Shown: in pieces, positions 3,845 through 19,602 of the stretch
Layout of the letters: every line of letters starts with the position of its first letter
How positions within the stretch are numbered: position 1 is the first letter of the stretch
Source: Fidelibacterota bacterium
GTDB taxonomy: Bacteria; Fidelibacterota; UBA8477; JABMPR01
Length of the DNA: 64,000 nucleotides
Assembly (NCBI GenBank): GCA_013202495.1
Contig: JABMQQ010000001.1
Location: 1 to 64,000, forward strand
Direction of reading: 5' to 3'
Program-made: the position numbers and the translations under genes
Notes under the pieces: model-generated
What the model was told of the DNA's origin: nothing
The model's input: only the letters and a program-made list of their open reading frames with translations
Databases searched by the model: none

Positions 3845-6800
3845 ATGAATGCAAGATGCAAGTATCGTATCATATCAAGCCTGAGCATTGTCATAGGGTT
3901 GTGGTTGACAACCGGACTGTCATTTGGGCAAAATATTGATGAGATAAACATCCTTATGGATGACCCTGAATTAATCCAAAAGACTCTGAACAACACGAAC
4001 TTCTCGCAGCCGCAAGCAGGACTGAGGGATCTGGACTTTTCCTTCCAGATGATCGCTTACGCTGAATATGATCCCTATGACTATTCAGCAGTCTGGCACC
4101 CCACCGAAGGCAGTCGGGGTCTCTGTGCAGGATCTGATCTTGATGGCGACGGGCACCAGGAAATATTTGCTGTTCATTATGGCAATGGAAGTGGCGTAGT
4201 TGGTTTTGAAATGAATGACTCTGGAACTCTTGAAATGATCTGGAACTCGGTCCTGACTCCAACAACTTATAATTTAGGAACCCGCTTTGTACAAACAGGT
4301 GACCTGGATGGCGATGGATATGGAGAAATTGTATTTTTCCGGGGAAAATATTCAGATGATCCAAATCGTGGACTGTACATATATGAATGGGATGGTACCA
4401 ATGATGGCTATGAGCTCGCCTATCACAATCCCTTACTGTCTCTGAGCGGCGATCTGGTCTCTGACATGGTGATTGAGCACTTCCTGCTTGAGGATGTGGA
4501 CGATGACGGCACTACGGAGCTGATCTTTGCCAATAATGGCTTAAGCATGGGGCTTGATCGCTCTGAGGATTTCTTCTCAATCCTTAGCATCGCAGGAGAT
4601 ATTGGTTCTGGATCTGAAATACTGACTGAAGAATATTGGATCAGTCCCAGGGATGTAGACCGTGATGGCGTGATAGAGGACGGTCTCGGCGGTGGAAGCG
4701 GTCTGAATGTTCAAGTCTGTGATACTGATGGTGATGGTCTCAAGGAAGTCTTCTGCCATCCATACAACTACTTCAATATGTTCTTTTTTGAAGCCAGAGG
4801 ACCGGATACCTATAGTCTGGGCGATACAACCAATATTCAATTCACTTACCCCGACGATAATGCTCAGCTTATGAATGCCGCCGTATCGGATATGGATGGT
4901 GATGGGGATGATGAGATTTATATCGCCAATTATGTAACTGGCGATGTCTATATGATCCAGGATACTGATGGTGAGGCCACCTCCTTACTGGAAAGCGAAG
5001 TGACCGTTTTAGGTGAGAATGTAGGGGCTCAATTTGGAGCGTTAGCCTTTGATTTTGATACCAGTGGAACTGATGAAATATACTTTGGTAGTTCAGCAGT
5101 ATTTGGAGCTGATATCCGTGTCTGGGATGGTGAGGAGTTCAGCAGCTATCAGTCAGATGCAGAATCAGATGGATTCCTGCCGAAGATGGATGTAGCTGAT
5201 ATGAATGGGAATGGAATACCAGAACTTATTACAGCTCATCAGATGGTTTCAAACTATCCGCAGAGAATTATTCGGGTCTTAGAATACCTGCCTGATGATC
5301 CTTCAAATTCACGATGGGCATTTACGCCAGTTTACAATGTTGGTTACACCGATGACTGGGGGAACAGTTATGCACCTATTTTAGGTGACTACAACAACGA
5401 TGGAAATATAGATGTTTTTGTCACCAATGGTGGAGATCAACGTAATTTCCTATACCAAAATTCTGGTTTGGGCTATTTCCAACGAATCTGGGAAGGGGAA
5501 ATATACTGGGATCAGAATTGGTCTAACACGGCCTCCTGGGGTGATTACGACAACGATGGTGCCCTTGATCTATTTGTCGCTAATGGAGGCGATGGAGAAG
5601 CCAATGCCCTCTACCATAACCTGGGCGATGGAACCTTTCAGAGAATCTATGAAGGATCAATAGCATCTGAGGTTAATAGCTCCAGAAGTGCCAGTTGGGG
5701 TGACTATGACAACGATGGCTACCTGGATCTCTATGTAGGCAACAGTTCAGATCCAAATGGGACCAACTCACTTTATCAAAATAATGGCGATGGCAGCTTC
5801 AGCGCTGTAAGCGTTGGATGGATTGTGTTTGACGATGATGAATCGGGATCGGTTTCCTGGTGTGACTATGACAATGATGGTGACCTGGACATGTATGTGG
5901 CTAACTGTGGTCAAAATTCAATGTATCGCAACGAGGGCGAGGGCTCCTTTACCAAGATTCAAACTGGTGTACTGGTAGCTCATGATGACTGTTCACAGGG
6001 TGCCAGTTGGGCAGACTACGACAATGATGGTGATTTTGATGTGTTGGTGACCAGTGGAGATGATCACTCAAATCGTCTGTATCAAAACCAGGGCGAGGGT
6101 GTTTTTGTTGAGATCACCGAGGGGGCAATAGTTACTGATAACTCTAATTCCTGGGGAAGCACCTGGGCTGACCTGGATAATGATGGTGATCTGGATCTCT
6201 TTGTGGTCAACAGTGCCGAACCCGATCCCCGTGACAACTTCATATACACCAATAACGGAGAAGGGAGTTTTACTGGGGTGTACGATAATCTCCTCAATCA
6301 GAATGATCTGATCCCCCTTGGCTGTGCCTGGGGTGACTATAACAATGATGGTGCTATCGATCTTTTTATTGGAATAGATGGGGGCCAGAACCGGCTATAC
6401 GCCAATCAGGGTAATTCGAATTCCTGGGTGAATATCAAGTGTGTTGGCACCGCATCCAACAGATCTGCAATTGGTGCTAAAGTTCGTGTCAAAGCCAATA
6501 TCTATGACCTGGATACCTGGCAGGTAAATGAAATCAGTGGACAAACTGGAGCTTTTGGACAAAATAGCCTCAATGCCGAGTTTGGTCTTGGTAACGCCGA
6601 CCTTATCGATTCCCTACGCATTGAATGGCCCTCTGGTATGATCAATGAGTATACAGATATTCAAGTCGATGAGTTCTATGTCATCCAGGAGGGACCTGCC
6701 TTACAGGTTTCAGCTGACACACTGGCATGGGGGGAAGTATACCTGGGTAGTGCCAATGCGCTAGCCCTGGAATTATCAAATCTGGGACCAGCATCGATTC

Positions 6801-9800
6801 AGGTTGAAAATGTTAGCATAGATAATTCCGTGTTTACTGCTGATCTCACCTCACTTCAGATCGAACCTGGAACTTCATCAGCACTATCCATCACTTTTGA
6901 ACCTACGGCGACAGGATATTTTGAAGGACTTCTCACATTCACCTCAAGTGATCCGCTTGCCCCCAACGATAGCATTGTTCTTTCAGGTCAAGCCATATTG
7001 GCTCCTGATATTGCTGTATCACCAGATAGTGTGATGGTAACCCTCTTACCAGGTGCAACTCATACTCAAACAATAACTATCGACAATATCTCTGGTGAGA
7101 GCACACTCCATTGGACAGCTCATTTGGAGATAGATGACATGACCCGAACAGTCACCTTCACAAAAGATGATTTTGCTTTGTGGGGTCAGCCAGAAAACCA
7201 GGATCGGATAACCGACAACGTCTGGATTACCCGAGCTAACAATCAGGGCATTTTTAATGCTGCAGTGGAATCTAATTATGATTATGACGTGTCCCCCTGG
7301 GATACGGAATGGGCTTATGGATATTCAGAAGATTTAGAACCTGAGGATTATGGGATTTGGCGTGATGCCATAGATGCCTACCCGCCAGGAATGATTGACC
7401 AACCACTTTCTGTCCATTTGATATCAGATGATATCTACCTTGATGTTCTTTTTCATAGTTGGACTTCAGGTGGTAATGGAGGTGGTTTTTCATATACCAG
7501 AATAGCTACCTCACCTGAATGGATAAAGCTATCCTCTGAAATGGAATCTTTGGACATTGGTGAGAGTGTTTCCATAGAATTATTGCTGGACGCTCTGGAG
7601 ATGCCAGCTGGAACTCATATTGCAGAAGTGTTGATCAGCAGCAATGATCCTGATGAACCCGAAATAATCATACCAGTTGAGATGGAAGTAAGCATTGCGC
7701 CAGATATTTATCTCGAAAATGATACACTCCTGTTTGGTAATGTCTTCAACGGATATTCTGATACCCTGGCTATCCCCATCGAGAATTGGGGGTCGGCAGG
7801 TCTAGTCGTTACAGATGCATCAGTTGATCTGGCCGAATATGGAGTGAGTACTCAGTCTTTTGAAGTTTTACCTGATGAGATCTATATGTTAGAAGTGATT
7901 CTGACTCCTTCTTCAGCTGGTGACTATTCAGGAGTACTGACGCTGACAACTTCTGATCCAGATGAGGAATTCTTCACAATCACACTGTTAGGGAGCAGTG
8001 TGGATCCACCCATCGTTGGTGTAGATCCTGATTCATTATATGCTGCCCTGCTGACTGATGAGACCCTCGGTCAAAATATGATCATATCAAATACTGGCTT
8101 GAGTGAGCTCAACTATGAGATCCGATCAATATCCGTGGAAAACTTCTCAAGAGTGAGAGCCGCTCCCGACATAAGTTTGTTGACAGGTCCCCGGTATAGT
8201 TGGGATGAATTCTTTGGTGAGAATTTACACGAACTCAACAGGAATGAGTGGGGCAGATCAGGCAAACCTGGACCGCAGGCAAATACTCCGAACACCGCCA
8301 ACGAAGTCAATCTCAGGGAACTGAGGGAAAGCTGGGAGTTGCTTTATACAGATCCAGAAGAATTTGGACCAGTTGATGTTCAACACGTCTATGGTAGCAT
8401 GACTTCAGATGAAGTGCTTGTCAAAATTGAAGGCTATACTGAATTTGATGAGATGGTGTATGCCGTTTACATCGATATAGACCAGAATATGGATACAGGA
8501 CTGGACACTGAAGAAGATGAGCTGGGATGGTATCTGGGTATTGATTATGCCATGATAAGTACAGGTTGGGGATTCGATGGATTTTTTCTCGTAGATGAGG
8601 AGTCTCAAGATTTGGTATGGTTGGATTCACTAACAACCAACATTTTTGGTACAAACTCTACTGAAAGAACTATTGGCGCAGATATCAGCTATTTCGAGGG
8701 CGTAGCAGCCTTCAATTTTGCTATTATTTGTGATGAGGGAATTGAGGATATGGTCCCGGATTTTGGATCTGGACACATTACGTTTCAGTTGGGAACCCCC
8801 TGGTTGGCTTTCGAGCCAGAGATGGGCTCAATTGGAGCGGGTCAACAGGAAGACATCAGTGTAACCTTTGATGCCGCTGATATGTTTGGTGGAGAGTATT
8901 ATTCACAGATTACAGTTCAAAGTAATGATCCTGAATCACCTGAAATTACTGCCAGCGCCCACTTATCAGTAACAGGGGTGCCCAACATCCAAATTGCTGA
9001 AGAGGACCTATCTTTTGGTGACATCTTTGTGAATTATGAATCAGAATTAGAGTTTGAAGTACAAAACACTGGAACTGATTCTCTACATATCAATAGCATT
9101 TCTTCAGACAACCCAGTATTCATAGTCTCTCCCACAGCGTTGGATATTCATCACAGTGAGTCTGCGTTCATTTCAGTGCGTATATCGCCTGATGCAGTCG
9201 GCGAATATGACGGCACCATCAGTCTTCTCTCTGATGATCCAGATAATGGGAATCTATCGCTGGAGGTGAATGCCAATGCCTTAATCGCGCCTGAAATCGG
9301 AATAAATCAGAATTCACTGGTACATAATGTTTTTGGCAGTGTTGAGGTGAGAGATACCCTCATAGTCTCCAATACGGGTGGGAGTGATCTCGCCTATTTC
9401 ATTCACATTGAAGAGCTTGGCGAAACCAGAGATGCAGGTGGACCAGACGCATTTGGTTACTCCTGGAAAGACTCAAATGAGCCTGGGGGATCCGAATATG
9501 AATGGATCGAAGCTTCAGGAGGCGAACAATTCTTTTTATATGATGATGATTTTGTTTCTGAGGTACCCCTTGGGTTCGAGTTTGAGTACTATGGCATCCC
9601 CTATAACAATATCAATATCATGTCCAACGGCTGGTTGAGTTTTAGCTCGACAAGTAGCTGGTTTCCCGATGCAGTGCCGTATTACTTTGCTGGAGAATTT
9701 GACGGAGCGATAGCTCCCTTTGGTGGTGATTTATTTCCTCCTGAAGGTCAAATATATGTATTGCAGACAGGGTCAGCACCAGACAGACAGACTATTATTG

Positions 9801-10531
9801 AATACAACCATGTATCATGGTGTTGTTCAGGACCTCCCTTTATGACCTTTCAGGTGATCTTCTATGAGAGAACCAACCGTATTCGATTTCAATATCAGGA
9901 TTTGAGCGGAAATTACCCACAATCTTTGGGCATCTCAAATGAAGACAATAGCATTGGAATTGGAAATGGTGGGTTTGATGACACTTATATCAATCCAAGT
10001 ATCGTTTCTGACAATTATGCTATTGAGTTCTCAAGTCAGATCGATTGGGTGAGTGTTGATCCACTGGCTGGTACAATACCTGCCGGTATGAGTGAAACCC
10101 TGGCCATCCTCATCGACGCCACCAATCTAGAAAATGGTAGCTATGAAGCTCAACTCACTTTCGATAGTAATGATCCTGAGCTGCCGCGCACGGCGATTCC
10201 AGTTCTTGTGTATCTGCAGGGAGTTTCAGTTCATGGGGACGGGTTGCTTCCAGACTCCTACACCCTTGAACAGAACTATCCAAATCCATTTAATCCAACC
10301 ACTACCATTCGCTACGGTTTACCCGAAAGTTCTGATGTAAGCCTCTACATCTATGATATTAAGGGTCGGGTGGTACAACAATATACAGTAGAGGATCAAG
10401 CCGCAGGCTGGGTTGACATTGAATGGAATGGTACCAATTCATGGGGTGAGAGGGTAAGTACAGGTGTTTATCTCTGTCGACTGGAAGCAGGGAATTACAC
10501 CAAGACCATCAAGATGGTGTATCTCAAATAA
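3845..10531 (+). CDS. Giant (2228 aa) secreted protein: VCBS/FG-GAP repeats, ASPM-SPD-2-Hydin (ASH)-like repeats, C-terminal sorting domain
   Basis: Repeated WGDYDNDGxLDLFVANGG units (about 5380-6400); repeated 'PDIxxxxDxLxFGxVxxGxxxxLxLxIxNxGxxxLxV' units; CTD NYPNPFNPTTTIRYGLPE. Confidence 0.92.
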   Translation: MNARCKYRIISSLSIVIGLWLTTGLSFGQNIDEINILMDDPELIQKTLNNTNFSQPQAGLRDLDFSFQMIAYAEYDPYDYSAVWHPTEGSRGLCAGSDLDGDGHQEIFAVHYGNGSGVVGFEMNDSGTLEMIWNSVLTPTTYNLGTRFVQTGDLDGDGYGEIVFFRGKYSDDPNRGLYIYEWDGTNDGYELAYHNPLLSLSGDLVSDMVIEHFLLEDVDDDGTTELIFANNGLSMGLDRSEDFFSILSIAGDIGSGSEILTEEYWISPRDVDRDGVIEDGLGGGSGLNVQVCDTDGDGLKEVFCHPYNYFNMFFFEARGPDTYSLGDTTNIQFTYPDDNAQLMNAAVSDMDGDGDDEIYIANYVTGDVYMIQDTDGEATSLLESEVTVLGENVGAQFGALAFDFDTSGTDEIYFGSSAVFGADIRVWDGEEFSSYQSDAESDGFLPKMDVADMNGNGIPELITAHQMVSNYPQRIIRVLEYLPDDPSNSRWAFTPVYNVGYTDDWGNSYAPILGDYNNDGNIDVFVTNGGDQRNFLYQNSGLGYFQRIWEGEIYWDQNWSNTASWGDYDNDGALDLFVANGGDGEANALYHNLGDGTFQRIYEGSIASEVNSSRSASWGDYDNDGYLDLYVGNSSDPNGTNSLYQNNGDGSFSAVSVGWIVFDDDESGSVSWCDYDNDGDLDMYVANCGQNSMYRNEGEGSFTKIQTGVLVAHDDCSQGASWADYDNDGDFDVLVTSGDDHSNRLYQNQGEGVFVEITEGAIVTDNSNSWGSTWADLDNDGDLDLFVVNSAEPDPRDNFIYTNNGEGSFTGVYDNLLNQNDLIPLGCAWGDYNNDGAIDLFIGIDGGQNRLYANQGNSNSWVNIKCVGTASNRSAIGAKVRVKANIYDLDTWQVNEISGQTGAFGQNSLNAEFGLGNADLIDSLRIEWPSGMINEYTDIQVDEFYVIQEGPALQVSADTLAWGEVYLGSANALALELSNLGPASIQVENVSIDNSVFTADLTSLQIEPGTSSALSITFEPTATGYFEGLLTFTSSDPLAPNDSIVLSGQAILAPDIAVSPDSVMVTLLPGATHTQTITIDNISGESTLHWTAHLEIDDMTRTVTFTKDDFALWGQPENQDRITDNVWITRANNQGIFNAAVESNYDYDVSPWDTEWAYGYSEDLEPEDYGIWRDAIDAYPPGMIDQPLSVHLISDDIYLDVLFHSWTSGGNGGGFSYTRIATSPEWIKLSSEMESLDIGESVSIELLLDALEMPAGTHIAEVLISSNDPDEPEIIIPVEMEVSIAPDIYLENDTLLFGNVFNGYSDTLAIPIENWGSAGLVVTDASVDLAEYGVSTQSFEVLPDEIYMLEVILTPSSAGDYSGVLTLTTSDPDEEFFTITLLGSSVDPPIVGVDPDSLYAALLTDETLGQNMIISNTGLSELNYEIRSISVENFSRVRAAPDISLLTGPRYSWDEFFGENLHELNRNEWGRSGKPGPQANTPNTANEVNLRELRESWELLYTDPEEFGPVDVQHVYGSMTSDEVLVKIEGYTEFDEMVYAVYIDIDQNMDTGLDTEEDELGWYLGIDYAMISTGWGFDGFFLVDEESQDLVWLDSLTTNIFGTNSTERTIGADISYFEGVAAFNFAIICDEGIEDMVPDFGSGHITFQLGTPWLAFEPEMGSIGAGQQEDISVTFDAADMFGGEYYSQITVQSNDPESPEITASAHLSVTGVPNIQIAEEDLSFGDIFVNYESELEFEVQNTGTDSLHINSISSDNPVFIVSPTALDIHHSESAFISVRISPDAVGEYDGTISLLSDDPDNGNLSLEVNANALIAPEIGINQNSLVHNVFGSVEVRDTLIVSNTGGSDLAYFIHIEELGETRDAGGPDAFGYSWKDSNEPGGSEYEWIEASGGEQFFLYDDDFVSEVPLGFEFEYYGIPYNNINIMSNGWLSFSSTSSWFPDAVPYYFAGEFDGAIAPFGGDLFPPEGQIYVLQTGSAPDRQTIIEYNHVSWCCSGPPFMTFQVIFYERTNRIRFQYQDLSGNYPQSLGISNEDNSIGIGNGGFDDTYINPSIVSDNYAIEFSSQIDWVSVDPLAGTIPAGMSETLAILIDATNLENGSYEAQLTFDSNDPELPRTAIPVLVYLQGVSVHGDGLLPDSYTLEQNYPNPFNPTTTIRYGLPESSDVSLYIYDIKGRVVQQYTVEDQAAGWVDIEWNGTNSWGERVSTGVYLCRLEAGNYTKTIKMVYLK

Positions 10532-10624
10532 ACGGCAGACAGAACAAATTGCTAAGTCATGGCCAGTATAGAATGAAGAGGAAAATTATTTAATAGTTTA
10601 GAATCATATACCAGGGGGTGTGCT

Positions 10625-11566
10625 GTGAAACGAACAAATCGATGGAACAAGATCCTGCTTATTGCAGGTATCATTTGCCTGGGCAGTATAACCATCCCGG
10701 ATGTTACCGGTCAATCCCTCTTGGCTTCAACCACAATCGACTCCCTGGCAATCCCCGAGATACAGGAATTCATCAATACAGGTAAGCTGATTGCCATTGC
10801 TGATGACGTTGGAATTGTCATCGATGAGGCAGAAAATAATCAGTATAAACTCTTCCCGGCCTATCCAGATTTTAAGTATGCATTTTTCGTTCAAGTTCCT
10901 GGGGGTGATTATGAATCATATGTCTTGTGTGAGATTCGTCCAGATGCAACTCTGGTAATTGCTGAGAAGACCAGCCGGACCCAGGTGGAAATCGTTAATA
11001 TTGTTGAGTATATCCACAGAAATAATGAGACCACGAATACGATTTTCAACACCCCACGCATTGGACTTGAAATCATTGGTGGAGCAGCCGGGTTCGCCTT
11101 CAGCGGATTATTTATGTATATGGTCCCCGAACTGGGTACAGGTCCGGCTATGTTATGGTTAGGGGTTTCCAGTGTCATGACCTCTTACCCCGTGTATTAT
11201 CTGGGGAATAGCCGTGATAAAAAAGGATCATTTACCCAGACCTTCATGGGAACTGCTTTTGCAGCCTGTACATTTTACGCCATCATGAATTTCCAAGATT
11301 GGCAAGTGGATCCAGAAAACCGCTATCTATCCGACCCTGATTACCCAACCTACTGGGCACCTGTCAGCGTTCTTATGATTGGTTCCAGCGTCCTCTCATT
11401 CAATCGGAGTCTAAGACCACAATCGAGGACTGAATCAGAATCCCTGCACCAGCTCGACAAGTTTTCTGCCGAATATCACTTTCCCCACATGATAGCTACA
11501 AATTTATTTGCTAAACCCGGTGAACGTTCATTTCTGATCCCAATCCTGTCATTGCAATTCAATTGA
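10625..11566 (+). CDS. Exported/membrane protein of unknown function
   Basis: GTG start with GGGGG at 10614-10618; N-terminal signal/TM segment; internal hydrophobic segments. Confidence 0.75.
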   Translation: MKRTNRWNKILLIAGIICLGSITIPDVTGQSLLASTTIDSLAIPEIQEFINTGKLIAIADDVGIVIDEAENNQYKLFPAYPDFKYAFFVQVPGGDYESYVLCEIRPDATLVIAEKTSRTQVEIVNIVEYIHRNNETTNTIFNTPRIGLEIIGGAAGFAFSGLFMYMVPELGTGPAMLWLGVSSVMTSYPVYYLGNSRDKKGSFTQTFMGTAFAACTFYAIMNFQDWQVDPENRYLSDPDYPTYWAPVSVLMIGSSVLSFNRSLRPQSRTESESLHQLDKFSAEYHFPHMIATNLFAKPGERSFLIPILSLQFN

Positions 11567-11578
11567 GGAGGTGGACTC

Positions 11579-12361
11579 TTGTTTAGATTGATGCAAATAT
11601 TTCACTTCCCACTAAAAATCCCACAGTGCCTGGTCATGCTCCTGGTTTCCTGGTCAATATCACCAGCTACTCCTCTTTATGCCAACACCCCATTAGATTC
11701 CCTCAGCTCGCCAATCTACTTTGGTATCGGTACAGGTTTCATGACGGGGAAGGCCATGCAGCTTAAATTGCCACTTGTTTCAACACTCTCACCTCGTGAA
11801 GACGGTGAAGCTGAGTTCCGTGAAGATGGTATGCAATTCAACCTCCATGTGAATAGTAGTCAATTCTTGCAAAATACTCGTCTCACAAGTCCGACTCGGT
11901 GGTATGCCACCATATCATATACGGCCTTTGATATCCAGTTTAGTAGCTATGAGGAAGGCGATGAGTATCTTCAAAACTTTGAGAAAACGTTCGACATTTA
12001 TGCTGGTTTCCAGAAGAATCTTCTGGAAACTGAGAGATGGATTCCCTTTCTGGAGGCTGGAATTGGATATCGATACGAAGAGGCTTTACATGGTGAATTT
12101 ATCAAAACTGATGACTGGCCATGGGGTCCACATTCAGTCCTTGCAACGGGAGAAGGTTCCAGCGGACAGGGCTTGACCTGGGGTTTTGGTGGTGGCTACT
12201 ATTTTAACGAAGAAAATTCGCCAAACCGTTACTGTATTGGTGTGCGTGGCGTTGTAGGGCCGAGATCAGAGGGGATTTCTGCATATGTAAATGACATCGC
12301 ATATTTTGTGCGGTTCCTGATTTATGCCAGATACGAAATTGGTATAAGAAGTGAACGCTAA
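11579..12361 (+). CDS. Exported protein of unknown function, possibly a small outer-membrane beta-barrel
   Basis: TTG start with GAGGAGG upstream; signal peptide; alternating aromatic/Gly pattern and C-terminal YARYEIGIRSER. Confidence 0.7.
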   Translation: MFRLMQIFHFPLKIPQCLVMLLVSWSISPATPLYANTPLDSLSSPIYFGIGTGFMTGKAMQLKLPLVSTLSPREDGEAEFREDGMQFNLHVNSSQFLQNTRLTSPTRWYATISYTAFDIQFSSYEEGDEYLQNFEKTFDIYAGFQKNLLETERWIPFLEAGIGYRYEEALHGEFIKTDDWPWGPHSVLATGEGSSGQGLTWGFGGGYYFNEENSPNRYCIGVRGVVGPRSEGISAYVNDIAYFVRFLIYARYEIGIRSER

Positions 12362-13161
12362 TGAACAAGATCAAGAATTCGATTCTGGCATTTCGGTTCC
12401 TTTTCATCAGCTTATTACTCCCAGTAGCAATTTTACCTCAAGTAGTTGTATTTACTGATTCCGGTCCCATCTATGGTGTTACACTCATTGGTATATCAAA
12501 TGCTGAAGTAACCATGCTTGCCGAAGGTGAGTCCGTGTATACCAGGCTACCCACAGAAATGATTGAGAAAGTAATACTCAGGGATGGACGTATCGCCTTC
12601 CCCTACAATGCTCATCAATTAACCAGAGCAGAATACAGTCAATACTATTCCGCATATAAACCCACTCCTGAAGAACTGGCGCAGAAATACTTGCTCGATG
12701 GGCTGCAACTGGGAGGCACTCTTTCCTTTTTGGGCTATCCTGGAGCCGGTGATGAGTGGTCTGGAACTTCAATAGTTGTAACCATTCCCGTGTTACGGTA
12801 TCTGGCTCTGAGATCGGGCTGGTATTCATTGGGTTACGTTTCAGGATCTGAATGTGACTGTGATGGAAGTGAGTATCAAGTTCTGGCTGGCCTAAATTTC
12901 AAAACACCAGGATTGAAACTCTATGCTGGTCGAGGTCGCTATAAGGAGCAGTTCACCAATTCATGTCGAACAAATTTCCTCTCTGGTGGTCTTTCCCTGA
13001 TTGGTGCAGGATATCATCTGAATCACTTTGGATTTGACATCTGGGCCAGCACAAGGGATGCCAGCGATTATAAAAGCCAAATTAATGCCAGCTATGGGCG
13101 CGTTGAGGTTACAGAGAATGAGGGCTCAACACTGGTTATCATGTTAAGCTACATTTTTTAA
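12361..13161 (+). CDS. Exported protein, N-terminal small-barrel-like repeat then possible beta-barrel region; unknown function
   Basis: TAATG overlap with upstream gene; signal peptide MNKIKNSILAFRFLFISLLLPVAILPQ; ends LVIMLSYIF*. Confidence 0.75.
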   Translation: MNKIKNSILAFRFLFISLLLPVAILPQVVVFTDSGPIYGVTLIGISNAEVTMLAEGESVYTRLPTEMIEKVILRDGRIAFPYNAHQLTRAEYSQYYSAYKPTPEELAQKYLLDGLQLGGTLSFLGYPGAGDEWSGTSIVVTIPVLRYLALRSGWYSLGYVSGSECDCDGSEYQVLAGLNFKTPGLKLYAGRGRYKEQFTNSCRTNFLSGGLSLIGAGYHLNHFGFDIWASTRDASDYKSQINASYGRVEVTENEGSTLVIMLSYIF

Positions 13162-13228
13162 AAGGGAGTCGTGGGTGGGGAAGATGCAAATCCTTAACAC
13201 ATATAAGATACTATCATGGGGGTGTCAT

Positions 13229-14437
13229 TTGAGATATTTATTAATTATCATGCTCTCAATTGGGACAGTTTTTCCGACTGATACCTTATTGACTAGGGCT
13301 AACCAGGTATATTTGGGTGAGCTTGTTGAACTAAATCAAACCAGCGCGATTTTTAAAGCTACCATATTTGTTAAACCACAACCGGTTCTCCTCGGCAATA
13401 TTCTTTATATTTCTTCCGAAGACGGCCAACTCCTCTATGGTGCTAGACCTGTCAACCTGGAGGCAGTAGTTGTTAAGGACAAAATGCCTGAGCAACAATC
13501 TTTGAACGAAATATCTGGTGCAACTCAAATGGCTGATTCTACTCGATTTGATCGTCTCGTTTATTTGAATGGTACCATCATCTCTGGGGAGTTGGTAAGC
13601 ATAGATGCACGCTTTGTGCAATTTAAAGATGAGGCTAAAGGGAGCGTTAACAATCTCCCAAGAGACATAATCAGACAAATCGTCAACAGTACTGGTGAAA
13701 TCCTTTATTCAAGCAATCCCAACAATGCAACACCCTCACCATTCACCCCCAGTATAGCTTCTTTTGGACTTATCCCTGGCAAGAATATTTTATTGGTTTT
13801 GGATGATGGTGCAGTCAAGGAGGTCCTATTTCAGAAGTTTTATAATGACTCTTTATTTTATGGTGAGCCACCATTCTCTGGTGTGCCTCTCAGAAGTATC
13901 AGTTCTCTGTGGTCGGAAGGGCAAGATATCGCCGGTGGGGCTGTGGGTTCAAGTTGTGGCCTATTATGTGGTTCTTGTATTGCCTATCCATTGCTCATGA
14001 TGAGTATAGATTCAGAAACTAGTCTCTTACCAGTAGTGGCTGTTCCCGTCGCTGCTGCATTTTTGGCAGGAAAACGATTTGTAGCCAAACCCAGCTGGCA
14101 TATGGTTTATCGTCCTGAGATTCCCAGAAATGGTTGGGATTATGAGCAGGGCTACGCTGCTGGGAAAAATCTGGCATCAGCCAAACCTACCTGGTTCTTG
14201 CCTGGCTTTTTTTACAATTTCTGGGCGGTCCAAACTTCCCGAAACCTAAGACCATGCCCACCAATCTCAGAAATGGAGCATAAGTCAAAAGCATATACTG
14301 CTGGTCTAATCGATGGCTATGGCGATCAAACCAGTCTCTACAATACCATTTATTCCAGCACGGGCTGTGTACTGGGAACGAGCGCAGCACTTTTTGGTTT
14401 GTTTCTTTGGGGTCTTGGGGCTTCTCATTCGAATTAA
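13229..14437 (+). CDS. Exported protein of unknown function with repeated small beta-rich units and C-terminal membrane/conserved module
   Basis: ORF 13175..14437; TTG at 13229 is the better start (GGGGG 6 nt upstream, MRYLLIIMLSIGTVF signal peptide). Confidence 0.7.
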   Translation: MRYLLIIMLSIGTVFPTDTLLTRANQVYLGELVELNQTSAIFKATIFVKPQPVLLGNILYISSEDGQLLYGARPVNLEAVVVKDKMPEQQSLNEISGATQMADSTRFDRLVYLNGTIISGELVSIDARFVQFKDEAKGSVNNLPRDIIRQIVNSTGEILYSSNPNNATPSPFTPSIASFGLIPGKNILLVLDDGAVKEVLFQKFYNDSLFYGEPPFSGVPLRSISSLWSEGQDIAGGAVGSSCGLLCGSCIAYPLLMMSIDSETSLLPVVAVPVAAAFLAGKRFVAKPSWHMVYRPEIPRNGWDYEQGYAAGKNLASAKPTWFLPGFFYNFWAVQTSRNLRPCPPISEMEHKSKAYTAGLIDGYGDQTSLYNTIYSSTGCVLGTSAALFGLFLWGLGASHSN

Positions 14438-15400
14438 GATAAATTAAGTTGGCAAAGAGGGAGTATGATGGGGAATAATCTTTCTAACAGGGGCTTAGGA
14501 TTTATGCTCCTGGTCGTAATTTGCGGAAGCACAATTGCCAGTTCCATACCCAACATCCCCAGAACTGCCCCGTTTAGCCCCAGAGAAGCGTCTTTTGGAC
14601 TCATACCTGATCAGAATATCCTCATGGTTTTGGAAGGTGGCGAAGTCAAGGCGGTCCTTTTTCAGAAGTTTTATAATGACTCATTATTTTATGGTGAGGA
14701 GCCATACTCTGGGGTGCCTCTAGGAAGTGTCAGTACTCTGTGGTCGGAAGGGCAAGATATCGCTGCTGGAGCGTTGGGCTCAAGTTGTGGACTGGCAGGT
14801 GGTTTGGGTGTTTCCGCCTACTTGCTCATTATCAGCATAGAATCAATAAACGATCTTGGTCTGATTGGGTTGGCGGCTATTCCCCTTGGCGGCGCAGTTC
14901 TGGGAGGAAAGTGTTTGGGAGCAAAGACCACCTGGCATCTGGCGTACCGTGCAGAGATTCCCAGAAGTGGCTGGGATTATGATCAGGGTTATGCAGCTGG
15001 GGAAAAGCTGGCATCAGCTAAACCTACCTGGTTTCTACCGGGATTCTTCTACAATTACTGGGCGGTGCAGACCTCCCGAAAGCTAATACCATGCCCACCC
15101 ACCTCAGAAATGGAGCATAAATCAAAAGCGTACGTTGCTGGTTTAATTGATGGGTATAGTGACCAAACCAGTCTCTACAATACCATTTATTCTGGCACTG
15201 GTTGTGTCCTGGGAACGGGTGCAGTATTTTTTGTCTTCTTGCTCATGTCGATGGGAGCAGCTTATGGGAATTAAAATATATTAATGTTAGCAAAGAGGGG
15301 GGTATCATGCGAGATAATCATTCTAATAAGGGCATAGGATTTATTCTCCTGGTTGCAATCTGCGGAAGCACATTTGGCAGTTCCATACCCACGATTCCAT
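13719..15400 (+). repeat. Diverged ~0.83-kb tandem duplication (copy 1 about 13740-14560, copy 2 about 14570-15400)
   Basis: CTTTTGGAC at 13761 and 14592 (offset 831); TGCGGAAGCA at 14522 and 15361 (offset 839); the duplicated block includes the intergenic region and next gene's leader. Confidence 0.88.
14465..15274 (+). CDS. Paralog/chimera: leader like the 15307 gene, body like the C-terminal half of the 13229 gene
   Basis: Body: FGLIPDQNILMVLEGGEVKAVLFQKFYNDSLFYGEEPYSGVPL vs FGLIPGKNILLVLDDGAVKEVLFQKFYNDSLFYGEPPFSGVPL; leader: NRGLGFMLLVVICGSTIASSIP vs NKGIGFILLVAICGSTFGSSIP. Confidence 0.8.
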   Translation: MMGNNLSNRGLGFMLLVVICGSTIASSIPNIPRTAPFSPREASFGLIPDQNILMVLEGGEVKAVLFQKFYNDSLFYGEEPYSGVPLGSVSTLWSEGQDIAAGALGSSCGLAGGLGVSAYLLIISIESINDLGLIGLAAIPLGGAVLGGKCLGAKTTWHLAYRAEIPRSGWDYDQGYAAGEKLASAKPTWFLPGFFYNYWAVQTSRKLIPCPPTSEMEHKSKAYVAGLIDGYSDQTSLYNTIYSGTGCVLGTGAVFFVFLLMSMGAAYGN

Positions 15401-16236
15401 TCACACATGTAGAAACTCCAATTGGACTGAATGAAGTCAGAGACCTTAAGGTCTTTCTGGCAGTCATTAATGACAATAATACAGGGAATGTGGAACGTGG
15501 AAAAAAAGGTCTTTATATAGGTCCTGATGACTTTTTAACGGTATCCATTTTCTTTCGACTCCACATGGATACCTGGCGTCTTGCCTTGACCTATAATAAT
15601 GTGACCTCACGCAAGAAGGAATATCGATACGATCTCATTTTTGGCGGTCTCTCAAAACACTATGAGAAAAATGGGATTGAGGTGAAACCCGAGCTGGGTC
15701 TTGTCTGGAAGGGTGATTGTGGGGGAGATGATCTGCAAAATTGGTTTCATCGTGGCAAAGATTTACCTGAATTATTTGTTCCCTACTGTGAGGGTGGGCT
15801 GGCTGCTTTTGCCGCGGCAATGGTTTCCAGACCCATAAAACTATCCCGCCCTTGTGAAGGTATACTCACATCGTCAATGGAAATCAGACTTATATCAGAC
15901 CTGGTCCCATCCCGCTTCAGTCCCATGTTGGGTTACCAGGCTGAGGTCTGGCCAGGTCGTCTGCAAGTGGAGATGCTGGCTGGGGCACGCTTGTATATGA
16001 ATGAAATTGATGAATACTCAAATATGGTTCGTTCAGGTACCTTTGCAGCTGTGAATGCGAAGTTCAGGGTATATGAGAATTTCTATTTTGATACTGGAAT
16101 TGCGATGTTTCCCGCTCAGAATCTGGAAAATGACCCGATCTATAAGGACAAGGATCATAGCTACATCCCTCAGATCACCATGGTCTTTTCATGGAATAGC
16201 GCCTGGTATGGACTATATAATTATTTGGAGTATTAA
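15307..16236 (+). CDS. Exported protein of unknown function (possible beta-barrel)
   Basis: ORF 15202..16236; ATG 15307 with GGGGG(G) 4 nt upstream and signal peptide; beta-rich pattern. Confidence 0.72.
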   Translation: MRDNHSNKGIGFILLVAICGSTFGSSIPTIPFTHVETPIGLNEVRDLKVFLAVINDNNTGNVERGKKGLYIGPDDFLTVSIFFRLHMDTWRLALTYNNVTSRKKEYRYDLIFGGLSKHYEKNGIEVKPELGLVWKGDCGGDDLQNWFHRGKDLPELFVPYCEGGLAAFAAAMVSRPIKLSRPCEGILTSSMEIRLISDLVPSRFSPMLGYQAEVWPGRLQVEMLAGARLYMNEIDEYSNMVRSGTFAAVNAKFRVYENFYFDTGIAMFPAQNLENDPIYKDKDHSYIPQITMVFSWNSAWYGLYNYLEY

Positions 16237-16302
16237 TTCCCACCACTTATGTTTGGCCATATCCTGTAAAGCATTGTAAATCAAGTGAGTTGTTGGAAAA
16301 AA

Positions 16303-19300
16303 ATGATTTCCATATCCAGGTTCCAGAACCGCACAACGAGAATGCTCGTCCTCCTGGGCCTGGTATTATTTTTCAATAATTGTACATTTAGGTCCATACA
16401 TCAGCCTGATCTGGCTGCACCTGATAGTTCAATCACCGTCACAATTCAAATACAACGGGGAATCGGGATGCATGGTGAAGGGGCAGATGCACTTCCACAT
16501 TTTGGTGTTTTGCTACCCAACGGGTGGAGCGTTGATGATTCTCTAGAATATCAACATGCTGGAGGTCCGGGATGGATACGATATTCTATTGAATATTCTG
16601 ATACTATGGAGATCATTGATCCTGCGCCATCGGGGTACTACTGGTGGGTTGGTCTTGATACCATCACCTCATCCATTCCAGCAGGGATGGTAGACTCTCA
16701 AATTGAGATATTTACTGATTCCCAGGAAGGGACATTTTTCATTGACTACATGTTAGGACACACTAATACCATGCAGCCCCTGCGTGAAGATCAATCAGGG
16801 CTCAATGTGGTGAGATCCAATGACCATCCAGTTTCAGTAAATGCTCCTATGGATTTGCGCGTAACAAATATGAGCGACTCAGGAATAGGGTCACTACGTC
16901 AGGCACTGGCGCAGATCAGCGCTCGTGGAACTATCAGCTTCGAGATTCCTGGCTCTGATAGTATTCAACTTGATAGCCAGCTTGTGGTGGATCGAAGTGT
17001 CACCATATTGGGACCAGCGGACTCAGAAATTATCCTTTTGGGAGGAGATACCTCCCGGATCATGCAAATTAATTCTCACCTAGATGTTTCAATCTCTGAT
17101 CTAACACTCAAAAATGGAAACATCATAGGAAAACCAGGTGGAGCAATCCTAACCGAAAACACAGGATGTGATCTTGAAAAGGGATCGATCACGATTTTCA
17201 ATTCTAAATTCATGAATAATAGAGCCATAGATGGGGGTGGCGTGTATGTTTCAAATATTAATTTGACGCTTGATCACTGCAGGATATTGAGCAATACCGC
17301 TCAGTTTGTAGGCGGTGGAATATTTGCGCGCAATTCAAATCTAGACATATCCTCATCGTTCATTCTCAACAACACAACAACCTCTTCGTTTGATGATGCT
17401 GGTGGCGGCATATATCTAGATCAGGGACGTTCCATTATTGCCAGCACTCTCATTGCAGAAAATTCAACAGAATCCTATGGTGGAGGATTGTACCTGGGAA
17501 ACGCTGTGGAAATAACCTTCAGCAATGCAACTTTTATAGATAACAGCGCGATGAGTGGAGGGGGTAATAACATCTTTGTGAATGAATATGCAGATGTATC
17601 TGTCTTGAATTCCATTATTGGCAATTCACAAAATGAAGGAATTGCACCTATTGACGAAGCCAGAGAAGTGATGACCATCCATCACTCAAATCTTGTAGGA
17701 ACTTTTGACCCCAACCTTTGGACTGGTGAGAATAACATATCTGTGAGCCCCCTTTTTGTTGATCCAAATTCGAATGACTATCATCTCCAACCCAATTCAC
17801 CCTGTATTGATATCGGTGCCCCTTGGAGTCGACAGGATAGTGATGGCACAACTGCAGATCTGGGTGCCTTCACAACTCAGAATTTTGCCGGGACTGGTGA
17901 ATTTCCCCCTGGAATTATTGGTGGCACACATGCCGGTGTGATCTCTACAGATGTGCTCCTGGGGAGTGATCTCATCGTAGCAGCAGGATCCACACTAACT
18001 ATTGCTCCTGGGGTAACGATCACCTCTATGGGTTTTAGCAATAAAATTTTAGTGTATGGGACCTTGGAGGCCCAGGGCTCCGTAGATGACACGATTAGAT
18101 TTCTTGGAGGCGATAATGGCTGGAATGGGATAGAGTTCAACGGAGAGAGTGCCTCAGAAAGTCATTTACAATACTGCCTGATCTCAAATGCTCGCAGGAT
18201 TGGTATTGCCTGTCTATCCAGCTCACCTACCATAGAAAATTCACTAATATCCAGAAATGGTTTGGATGATGAGCTGGGACGGGGTGGTGTTTATTGTGAG
18301 AATTCAGGGACTCATATCATCAATACTCAGATCACCCAAAATGAAAACCATGACTACAGTGGAGGTGGGATTACTGCCTTCGAGTCTTCCCATCTCGTTT
18401 TGAACGGTGTTGACATCTTAAACAATTATTCAGCGGGTGAAGGCGGAGGAATCGCAATTTATAATTCCAGTATTGTGCTGGAAAACGTCAGAGTCGCAGA
18501 GAATGTTGCTCAATGGAACGGTGCTGGAATATTTACCTACAATACTTCTCTAAGTATGATGGATTGTGATGTCTTCAATAATATCACCCCTGAGGGTGGG
18601 GGCGGTGGTATTTCAATTGTTCATGAAGAATGGTATGGGATAGGTCGAATGACGGATTCAGATACAAGAGAAGCTGGATTCACTCATCTCAAAGGTGTAA
18701 ATATTGACCATAATTCTGCATATTATGGTGCTGGTATTTCCACGCACGGACTAAGCAACATTTTGTTTAATGGTGTATCAATTACCAGAAATATGGCCAC
18801 GGAATTCGGAGGTGGTTTGGACTGCTGGAATTCAAACCCACTGATGGTCAATATTACGCTGGCAGACAACTCCACGGAGAGTGGAACTGCGCAAGGAATG
18901 TCTATTCGCCAGAGCTCAAGACCTAGATTGGTAAATTCGATTATCTGGGGCGAGTCCACTCAAGACATCAGATTTTTTGATGCAGATACAAGTTTGTTTA
19001 TGGTTGCATATTCGGATGTTCGGGATGGTGAAGCAGTGTTTGGATTCGAAGCAGATGCACATGCTATTGTCTCCTGGGAAGTAGGAAATATCACCAGTGA
19101 CCCTCTATTCACTAATCCAGAGGAGGGCATGTTTGAGATTGTCAGCAATTCACCCTGTATAGATGCTGGAGTGGCACAATTTGAGTGGGAAGGTGAGATA
19201 CTGGTCAATCTATCAGAGAATGAATATATGGGAATCGCCCCAGATATAGGTGCTATTCAAGTAGGATTACCTGCTGGCAATTCAAAAGAACTTATTACTC

Positions 19301-19602
19301 CCGTTGATTTTGCTTTGTCTCCAAATTTTCCCAATCCCTTCAATACCACCACCACTTTGCGCTATTCAATCCCATCGCGATCAGAGGTCAAACTGGAGAT
19401 ATTTGATATCTTGGGCCGAGAGATCGCTACCCTTGCGGACGATCCACAGGAAGCTGGTCAATATTTCATTTATTGGGATGGGAAAAATTCCGCTGGCATC
19501 AATATGAGTACAGGTCTGTATTTTTATCGGCTGAGAGCTCAAACTACAGAGTCAAATTCTATATATTTTTCCAAGGTTCGCAAAATGGTGCTCATCAAGT
19601 GA
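16303..19602 (+). CDS. Secreted parallel beta-helix repeat protein with CSLREA/choice-of-anchor-Q-like segment and C-terminal sorting domain
   Basis: ORF 16285..19602 (GTG 16285 or ATG 16303); LRVTNMSDSGIGSLRQALAQ...; repeated GGGI...N.S.L..; CTD NFPNPFNTTTTLRYSIPSRSEVKLEIFDILGREIATL. Confidence 0.85.
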   Translation: MISISRFQNRTTRMLVLLGLVLFFNNCTFRSIHQPDLAAPDSSITVTIQIQRGIGMHGEGADALPHFGVLLPNGWSVDDSLEYQHAGGPGWIRYSIEYSDTMEIIDPAPSGYYWWVGLDTITSSIPAGMVDSQIEIFTDSQEGTFFIDYMLGHTNTMQPLREDQSGLNVVRSNDHPVSVNAPMDLRVTNMSDSGIGSLRQALAQISARGTISFEIPGSDSIQLDSQLVVDRSVTILGPADSEIILLGGDTSRIMQINSHLDVSISDLTLKNGNIIGKPGGAILTENTGCDLEKGSITIFNSKFMNNRAIDGGGVYVSNINLTLDHCRILSNTAQFVGGGIFARNSNLDISSSFILNNTTTSSFDDAGGGIYLDQGRSIIASTLIAENSTESYGGGLYLGNAVEITFSNATFIDNSAMSGGGNNIFVNEYADVSVLNSIIGNSQNEGIAPIDEAREVMTIHHSNLVGTFDPNLWTGENNISVSPLFVDPNSNDYHLQPNSPCIDIGAPWSRQDSDGTTADLGAFTTQNFAGTGEFPPGIIGGTHAGVISTDVLLGSDLIVAAGSTLTIAPGVTITSMGFSNKILVYGTLEAQGSVDDTIRFLGGDNGWNGIEFNGESASESHLQYCLISNARRIGIACLSSSPTIENSLISRNGLDDELGRGGVYCENSGTHIINTQITQNENHDYSGGGITAFESSHLVLNGVDILNNYSAGEGGGIAIYNSSIVLENVRVAENVAQWNGAGIFTYNTSLSMMDCDVFNNITPEGGGGGISIVHEEWYGIGRMTDSDTREAGFTHLKGVNIDHNSAYYGAGISTHGLSNILFNGVSITRNMATEFGGGLDCWNSNPLMVNITLADNSTESGTAQGMSIRQSSRPRLVNSIIWGESTQDIRFFDADTSLFMVAYSDVRDGEAVFGFEADAHAIVSWEVGNITSDPLFTNPEEGMFEIVSNSPCIDAGVAQFEWEGEILVNLSENEYMGIAPDIGAIQVGLPAGNSKELITPVDFALSPNFPNPFNTTTTLRYSIPSRSEVKLEIFDILGREIATLADDPQEAGQYFIYWDGKNSAGINMSTGLYFYRLRAQTTESNSIYFSKVRKMVLIK

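What the first reader, a model, noticed from the sequence alone, without database searches (positions are those of the whole stretch)
13719..15400. Chimeric gene born from an ~831-839 bp tandem duplication spanning two genes
The middle gene (14465-15274) has the leader of the downstream gene (15307) and the body of the upstream gene (13229). The intergenic DNA and ribosome-binding region are duplicated too (GGCAAAGAGGGAGTATGATG vs AGCAAAGAGGGGGGTATCATG). One tandem duplication of [body-A + intergenic + leader-B] explains the order A-body, leader-B'/body-A', leader-B/body-B. The join is in frame near 14560-14575. A short shared CCCAACA (about 13722 and 14550) could have seeded it. The result is an intact exported ORF.
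Basis: seen in the sequence. Interest (0 to 1): 0.65.

Follow-up and report, generated by a model that had tools for sequence, protein, structure and literature searches.

The report
Chimeric gene from a tandem duplication
In an uncultured marine bacterium (phylum Neomarinimicrobiota), an old tandem duplication across the border of two neighbouring genes created a third gene between them, with the export leader of one and the body of the other; selection seems to have kept it open ever since, which shows how bacteria can make new genes in one step.

Summary
Window 13718-14559 and 14549-15398 are two diverged copies of one unit: 77.9% identity over 822 bp, running through the A-M gap and the ribosome-binding site. 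The middle gene M (14465-15274) joins the leader of B (15307-16236) to the C-terminal body of A (13229-14437).

A same-genus MAG (G018, isolate BH26) has the same six genes in the same order without M: A runs straight into B. Synonymous divergence dates the duplication after the G018 split: dS 0.65 for A-M against 1.03 for each copy against G018 (bootstrap P about 0.007). Since then A and M have equal synonymous branches (0.32 each), but M has 3.7 times more amino-acid change, densest in its membrane hairpin, with dN/dS about 0.44. A neutral ORF of this age would have gained about 6.6 stops; M has none.

The mechanism has a precedent: nusG'-'sigH and rplK'-'sigH in S. aureus have the same layout, with 7-8-bp repeats and in-frame joining, but those revert readily (PMC3486894). 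This is an old natural example. The function of A, M and B is unknown.

The parts
13229..14437 (+). Gene A (402 aa from TTG 13229, 420 aa from GTG 13175): exported or membrane protein with two N-terminal repeats (SH3-like small barrels by a weak model), then a C-terminal body with a hydrophobic hairpin and a C-terminal hydrophobic segment
   Evidence: ORF; repeats 1 and 2 align, shuffle P 0.003; hydrophobic segments; orthologue in G018, 59% aa identity over its length
13718..14559 (+). Duplication unit, copy 1: A body + A-M intergenic + leader now in M
14438..14464 (+). A-M intergenic DNA with ribosome-binding site, copy 1
   Evidence: Aligns with 15275-15306 and with the A-B gap of G018 and G007
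14465..15274 (+). Gene M, the chimera (269 aa; the ATG matching B's start is 14468): B-type leader (about codons 1-32) fused in frame to A-type body
   Evidence: M matches A over residues 17-269 (66%) and B over residues 2-39 (61%)
14549..14559 (+). Crossover zone of the duplication; starts with CCCAACA, also present in A at 13718
   Evidence: Overlap of A-type and B-type similarity
14549..15398 (+). Duplication unit, copy 2: A-type body in M + M-B intergenic + leader of B
14770..14915 (+). Hydrophobic hairpin of M (approximate limits), the fastest-changing part since the duplication
   Evidence: Body codons 60-125: dN 0.33 on the M branch, 0.01 on the A branch
15307..16236 (+). Gene B (309 aa): signal-type leader plus predicted outer-membrane beta-barrel; leader is copy 2
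   Evidence: Orthologues at 79-83% aa identity in G009, G007, G018, G012; up-and-down strands in a low-confidence model

Best explanation
A single in-frame tandem duplication of about 0.83 kb, from within gene A to just past the leader of the next gene B, produced M between them: B's ribosome-binding site, start codon and signal-type leader drive the C-terminal body of A. A kept its N-terminal modules and B its whole reading frame, so nothing was lost and the new gene arrived with ready-made translation and export signals. SHOWN: the duplicated unit, the order, the in-frame join, the two-gene state in a relative, the younger age of M, and asymmetric evolution. INFERRED: a short-junction event at a 4-7-bp match seeded it. 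M is made from the same transcript as A and B, exported, and sits in the membrane as a shortened A lacking the two N-terminal modules, perhaps partnering A or working beside it with a changed membrane hairpin. The confidence below is for the origin; for the functional reading it is about 0.3.
For: Continuous 822-bp diagonal including non-coding DNA. Ancestral A-B arrangement in G018 with all neighbours in order. dS A-M 0.65 below dS A-G018 1.03 and M-G018 1.03; bootstrap P 0.0065 and 0.0085. Equal dS branches for A and M (0.324, 0.325) with dN 0.038 against 0.142, never reversed in 2000 resamplings. A neutral ORF at this divergence averages 6.6 stops and none of 3000 simulated ones stayed open; M is open and its indels against A sum to multiples of three. 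No other copies in the own genome. The same event type was caught in the laboratory in S. aureus (PMC3486894).
Against: Trees rooted with the only outgroup of the body (G007 A2, 24-29% aa identity) cannot separate the three topologies (AU 0.69, 0.18, 0.41). M and A are closer in the first 60 body codons (dS 0.45) than in the rest (0.68-0.77), so later gene conversion may bias the date. The remnant in G007 groups with copy 1 rather than outside both copies (AU 0.92 against 0.085, not significant), which would put the duplication earlier than the G007 split. Only one relative shows the intact two-gene state.
Confidence: 0.88

Rival explanations
1. The duplication is older than the G018 split (A-M-B ancestral in the group) and G018 later lost M; A and M look close because of gene conversion.
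For: By amino acids A of the window is closer to A of G018 (77%) than to M (69%). Gene conversion is hinted at by the lower A-M divergence in the first 60 body codons. Excision between direct repeats is easy.
Against: dS, which is less affected by selection, is lower for A-M than for either copy against G018 (P about 0.007); the two distances to G018 are equal at 1.03, as expected for a duplication after the split. The ML tree with the distant outgroup also joins A and M, without significance. M's amino-acid excess sits mostly in one hairpin.
Confidence: 0.1
2. Two steps: A's body was duplicated first, and the copy later captured B's leader by recombination, rather than one event.
For: Such a history would give the same final gene.
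Against: Intergenic DNA, leader and body lie in one uninterrupted diagonal with broadly similar divergence along it (27-47 matches per 50 columns), and B keeps its own leader in place. One event is enough.
Confidence: 0.04
3. M arose as described but is a decaying by-product without function, on its way to loss.
For: Faster amino-acid change than A (dN/dS 0.44 against 0.12; upper bootstrap bound 1.19) and dN 0.33 in the hairpin. Body sequences of this kind were found in only three genomes. In G007 the A body at this locus is reduced to about 70 bp.
Against: No stop and no frameshift at an age where neutral drift gives about 6.6 stops; 96% of resamplings have dN/dS of M below 1; the first 60 and last 99 body codons stay constrained (0.22 and 0.32).
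Confidence: 0.15

Closest known systems
nusG'-'sigH and rplK'-'sigH chimeras by short-junction tandem duplication in Staphylococcus aureus (PMC3486894)
   Same: Tandem duplication of 1.2-1.9 kb between two 7-8-bp repeats; the downstream gene's ribosome-binding site, start and N-terminus fuse in frame to the upstream gene's body; both parent genes remain intact; the duplication can be lost again
   Different: There it is a rare laboratory event (at most 1 in 100,000) that is soon lost and activates a silent gene. Here it is present in a natural genome, about 22% diverged, apparently under purifying selection, and the captured part is a signal-type leader
Chimeric genes from tandem duplications that cross gene boundaries in Drosophila yakuba (PMC5460883)
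   Same: Duplication boundaries inside two genes make a chimera without destroying the parents
   Different: Eukaryotic, with changed expression and exon shuffling; here an operon-like gene string with a protein-level export leader (paper known here only from title and start of abstract)

Membership tests
Chimeric gene by short-junction tandem duplication (S. aureus sigH type) | Tandem repeat unit running from inside the upstream gene to inside the downstream gene, with both parents kept | tested here: met
Chimeric gene by short-junction tandem duplication (S. aureus sigH type) | In-frame fusion placed behind the downstream gene's translation start | tested here: met
   open ORF of 269 codons
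Chimeric gene by short-junction tandem duplication (S. aureus sigH type) | Short (about 7-8 bp) repeat at the two break points | tested here: inconclusive
   CCCAACA in A and M; B now CCCACGA; G007 B CCCAACA but possibly derived from copy 1
Chimeric gene by short-junction tandem duplication (S. aureus sigH type) | Reversible by recombination between the copies | tested here: inconclusive
   G007 has an A-tail remnant and a copy-1-like leader joined to a B body, as collapse would leave; AU 0.92 against 0.085
Chimeric gene by short-junction tandem duplication (S. aureus sigH type) | Chimeric protein is expressed | not testable with these tools
   No RNA or protein data
LpxR (lipid A 3-O-deacylase), considered for gene B | Match to known family profiles | tested here: not met
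   No such Pfam match at E up to 10 and no NCBIfam match at E up to 1; LpxR 3fid is only one of many barrels hit by a low-confidence model

The most novel reading that the evidence does not exclude
M is a truly new function born in one step: the chimera was kept because the leader swap and loss of the N-terminal modules freed A's body, and its membrane hairpin was then remodelled under positive selection. A relative (G007) later undid the duplication by recombination between the same repeats, so the locus records both birth and loss of such a gene.
Probability: 0.2. Interest if true: 0.55.

Novelty: new member of a known kind. Interest (0 to 1): 0.4.

Why it matters
New bacterial genes are usually traced to whole-gene duplication or transfer. 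Short-junction duplications across gene borders were seen to make in-frame chimeras in the laboratory, but those were unstable. This locus has an ancestral state in a relative, a dated event, intact parents and strong asymmetry in later evolution, so it is a clean natural case of such a chimera becoming a lasting gene.

Tried and rejected
Assembly artefact: rejected (22% divergence, synteny). Convergent signal sequences: rejected (similarity covers intergenic DNA, 82% over 101 ungapped bases). Known family for A, M or B: Pfam, NCBIfam and PDB sequence searches gave nothing above cut-offs; weak IncE, SH3-like and polyketide-cyclase matches below cut-off were set aside. AlphaFold models of A (pLDDT 38) and B (45) are too poor for fold claims. 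A scan of 84,980 species genomes with M found no relative (close relatives only); a scan with B gave five loci, four of them on contigs that match G009, G012, G018 and G003 by length. rpoB could not be used for the species tree because it was not found in the window's genome or in G007; SecA was used. The nearest genome (G013, 93% over 2.9 kb) cannot tell, because its contig ends 134 bp after the gene upstream of this block. A third repeat of the N-terminal module inside the body was not supported. The promoter and terminator scan was at chance level and not used.

Full report
Observation. Self-comparison of the region shows one long diagonal, 13739-14553 against about 14570-15392, 77.9% identical over 822 bp. 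As ungapped blocks it is 13718-14014/14549-14845, 14038-14337/14875-15174 and 14459-14559/15298-15398 with spacings of 831, 837 and 839. It covers the C-terminal body of A, A's stop codon, the intergenic DNA, the ribosome-binding site and the leader. The upstream part of A and the body of B are not repeated. So the copies are [A body + gap + leader] twice, and M is leader copy 1 plus body copy 2. The order is exactly that of one tandem duplication. The crossover lies in 14549-14559, in frame. The search of the own genome (G000, 3.9 Mb, 255 contigs) finds only these three places.

Source and relatives. The window lies in a MAG of the phylum Neomarinimicrobiota; matched contigs of relatives are MAGs such as SI036_bin79, SI053_bin15 and BH26. 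In SecA its nearest genome is G013 (98%), then G009; G007, G018 and G012 lie further out. G018 (C142, minus strand, 66165-64954 for A and 64923-63994 for B) has the genes F, E, D, A, B, C in the order of the window (10625-19602), with A followed by B after 30 bp, and no M. G009 and G012 lack the whole F-E-D-A block: there the large upstream gene leads directly to B. Their state says nothing about M. G013's contig ends 134 bp after the upstream gene.

Dating and selection. Over 224 body codons, NG86 dS is 0.65 (A-M), 1.03 (A-G018) and 1.03 (M-G018); dN is 0.18, 0.147 and 0.25. Split into branches: dS 0.324 for A, 0.325 for M and 0.707 for G018; dN 0.038, 0.142 and 0.109. The A-M dS is lower than the others in more than 99% of 2000 codon resamplings; dN of M exceeds that of A in all. 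dN/dS is 0.12 (A) and 0.44 (M, 0.23-1.19). The excess in M is concentrated in the hydrophobic hairpin (codons 60-125 of the body: 0.33 against 0.01), which stays hydrophobic. By simulation a neutral ORF of M's length at 0.325 changes per site carries 6.6 stops on average and none of 3000 stays open. Thus M has most likely been kept as a protein-coding gene. Whether the hairpin changed by relaxed or by positive selection cannot be told from one M sequence.

What stays unsettled. G007 has no A body of this type at the locus, but directly before its B lies about 70 bp of an A 3' end, then the gap and a leader (C4:89305-89500) that are 87% identical to copy 1 and 73% to copy 2. A tree joining G007 with copy 1 is favoured (AU 0.92 against 0.085). 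The similarity is higher than at third positions of the B body between the two genomes (64%; leader 76%, remnant plus gap 97 of 110). Three readings fit: G007 descends from an A-M-B state and lost the piece between the repeats; it received the piece by recombination from a close relative of the window; or copy 2 simply changed fast. If the first is right the duplication is older than the G007 split, near the limit of what dS allows (B of the window against B of G007: 0.80).

Seed. CCCAACA occurs at the left end in A (13718) and at the join in M (14549). The third site, in B, reads CCCACGA. Since M must match A on one side of the join by construction, only the B site is an independent test, and it gives 4 bases in a row today. 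G007's B has all 7 bases but may descend from copy 1. A short-junction origin is likely from precedent, not proven here.

Function. None of the three proteins has a curated family. A has two N-terminal repeats (shuffle P 0.003), the first modelled with modest confidence as a small beta-barrel (residues 36-89, pLDDT about 60-77). M lacks them and carries B's leader. B is modelled as a beta-barrel with low confidence, best described as an outer-membrane-like protein. The gaps of 27 and 32 bp and equal strand suggest one transcript; this is inference.

Comparison with what is known. The S. [quoted passage not shown] It is unstable. Here the chimera is old and has been kept. That makes the locus a natural, lasting member of a known kind of event, moderately interesting, not a new kind of system.

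Noticed in passing
L027 5806-6001 (G007:C4:89305-89500): Remnant of an A 3' end plus gap and a leader closest to copy 1, joined to a B body: possibly a collapsed duplication or a recombined piece.
   Followed up: partly
window 10532-14437; L028 around 6214-6294; L029 around 227-353: The block F-E-D-A is present in the window and G018 but absent in G009 and G012, where the large gene upstream is followed directly by B.
   Followed up: partly
L071 1-134 (G013:C8): The nearest genome's contig ends in 134 bp of unrelated sequence exactly after the stop of the gene matching 3845-10531; possibly a mobile element end.
   Followed up: partly
L027 2178-5715 (G007): Two distant A-like genes (279 and 418 aa) lie upstream of B in G007, sharing nearly the same N-terminal module.
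   Followed up: partly
L082 (G000:C190:23171-23419, minus strand): Another protein of the own genome carries a match to the N-terminal module of A.
   Followed up: no
window 14465-15274: M has higher G+C (48.4%) than A (43.4%), B (43.7%) and the window (43.9%).
   Followed up: no
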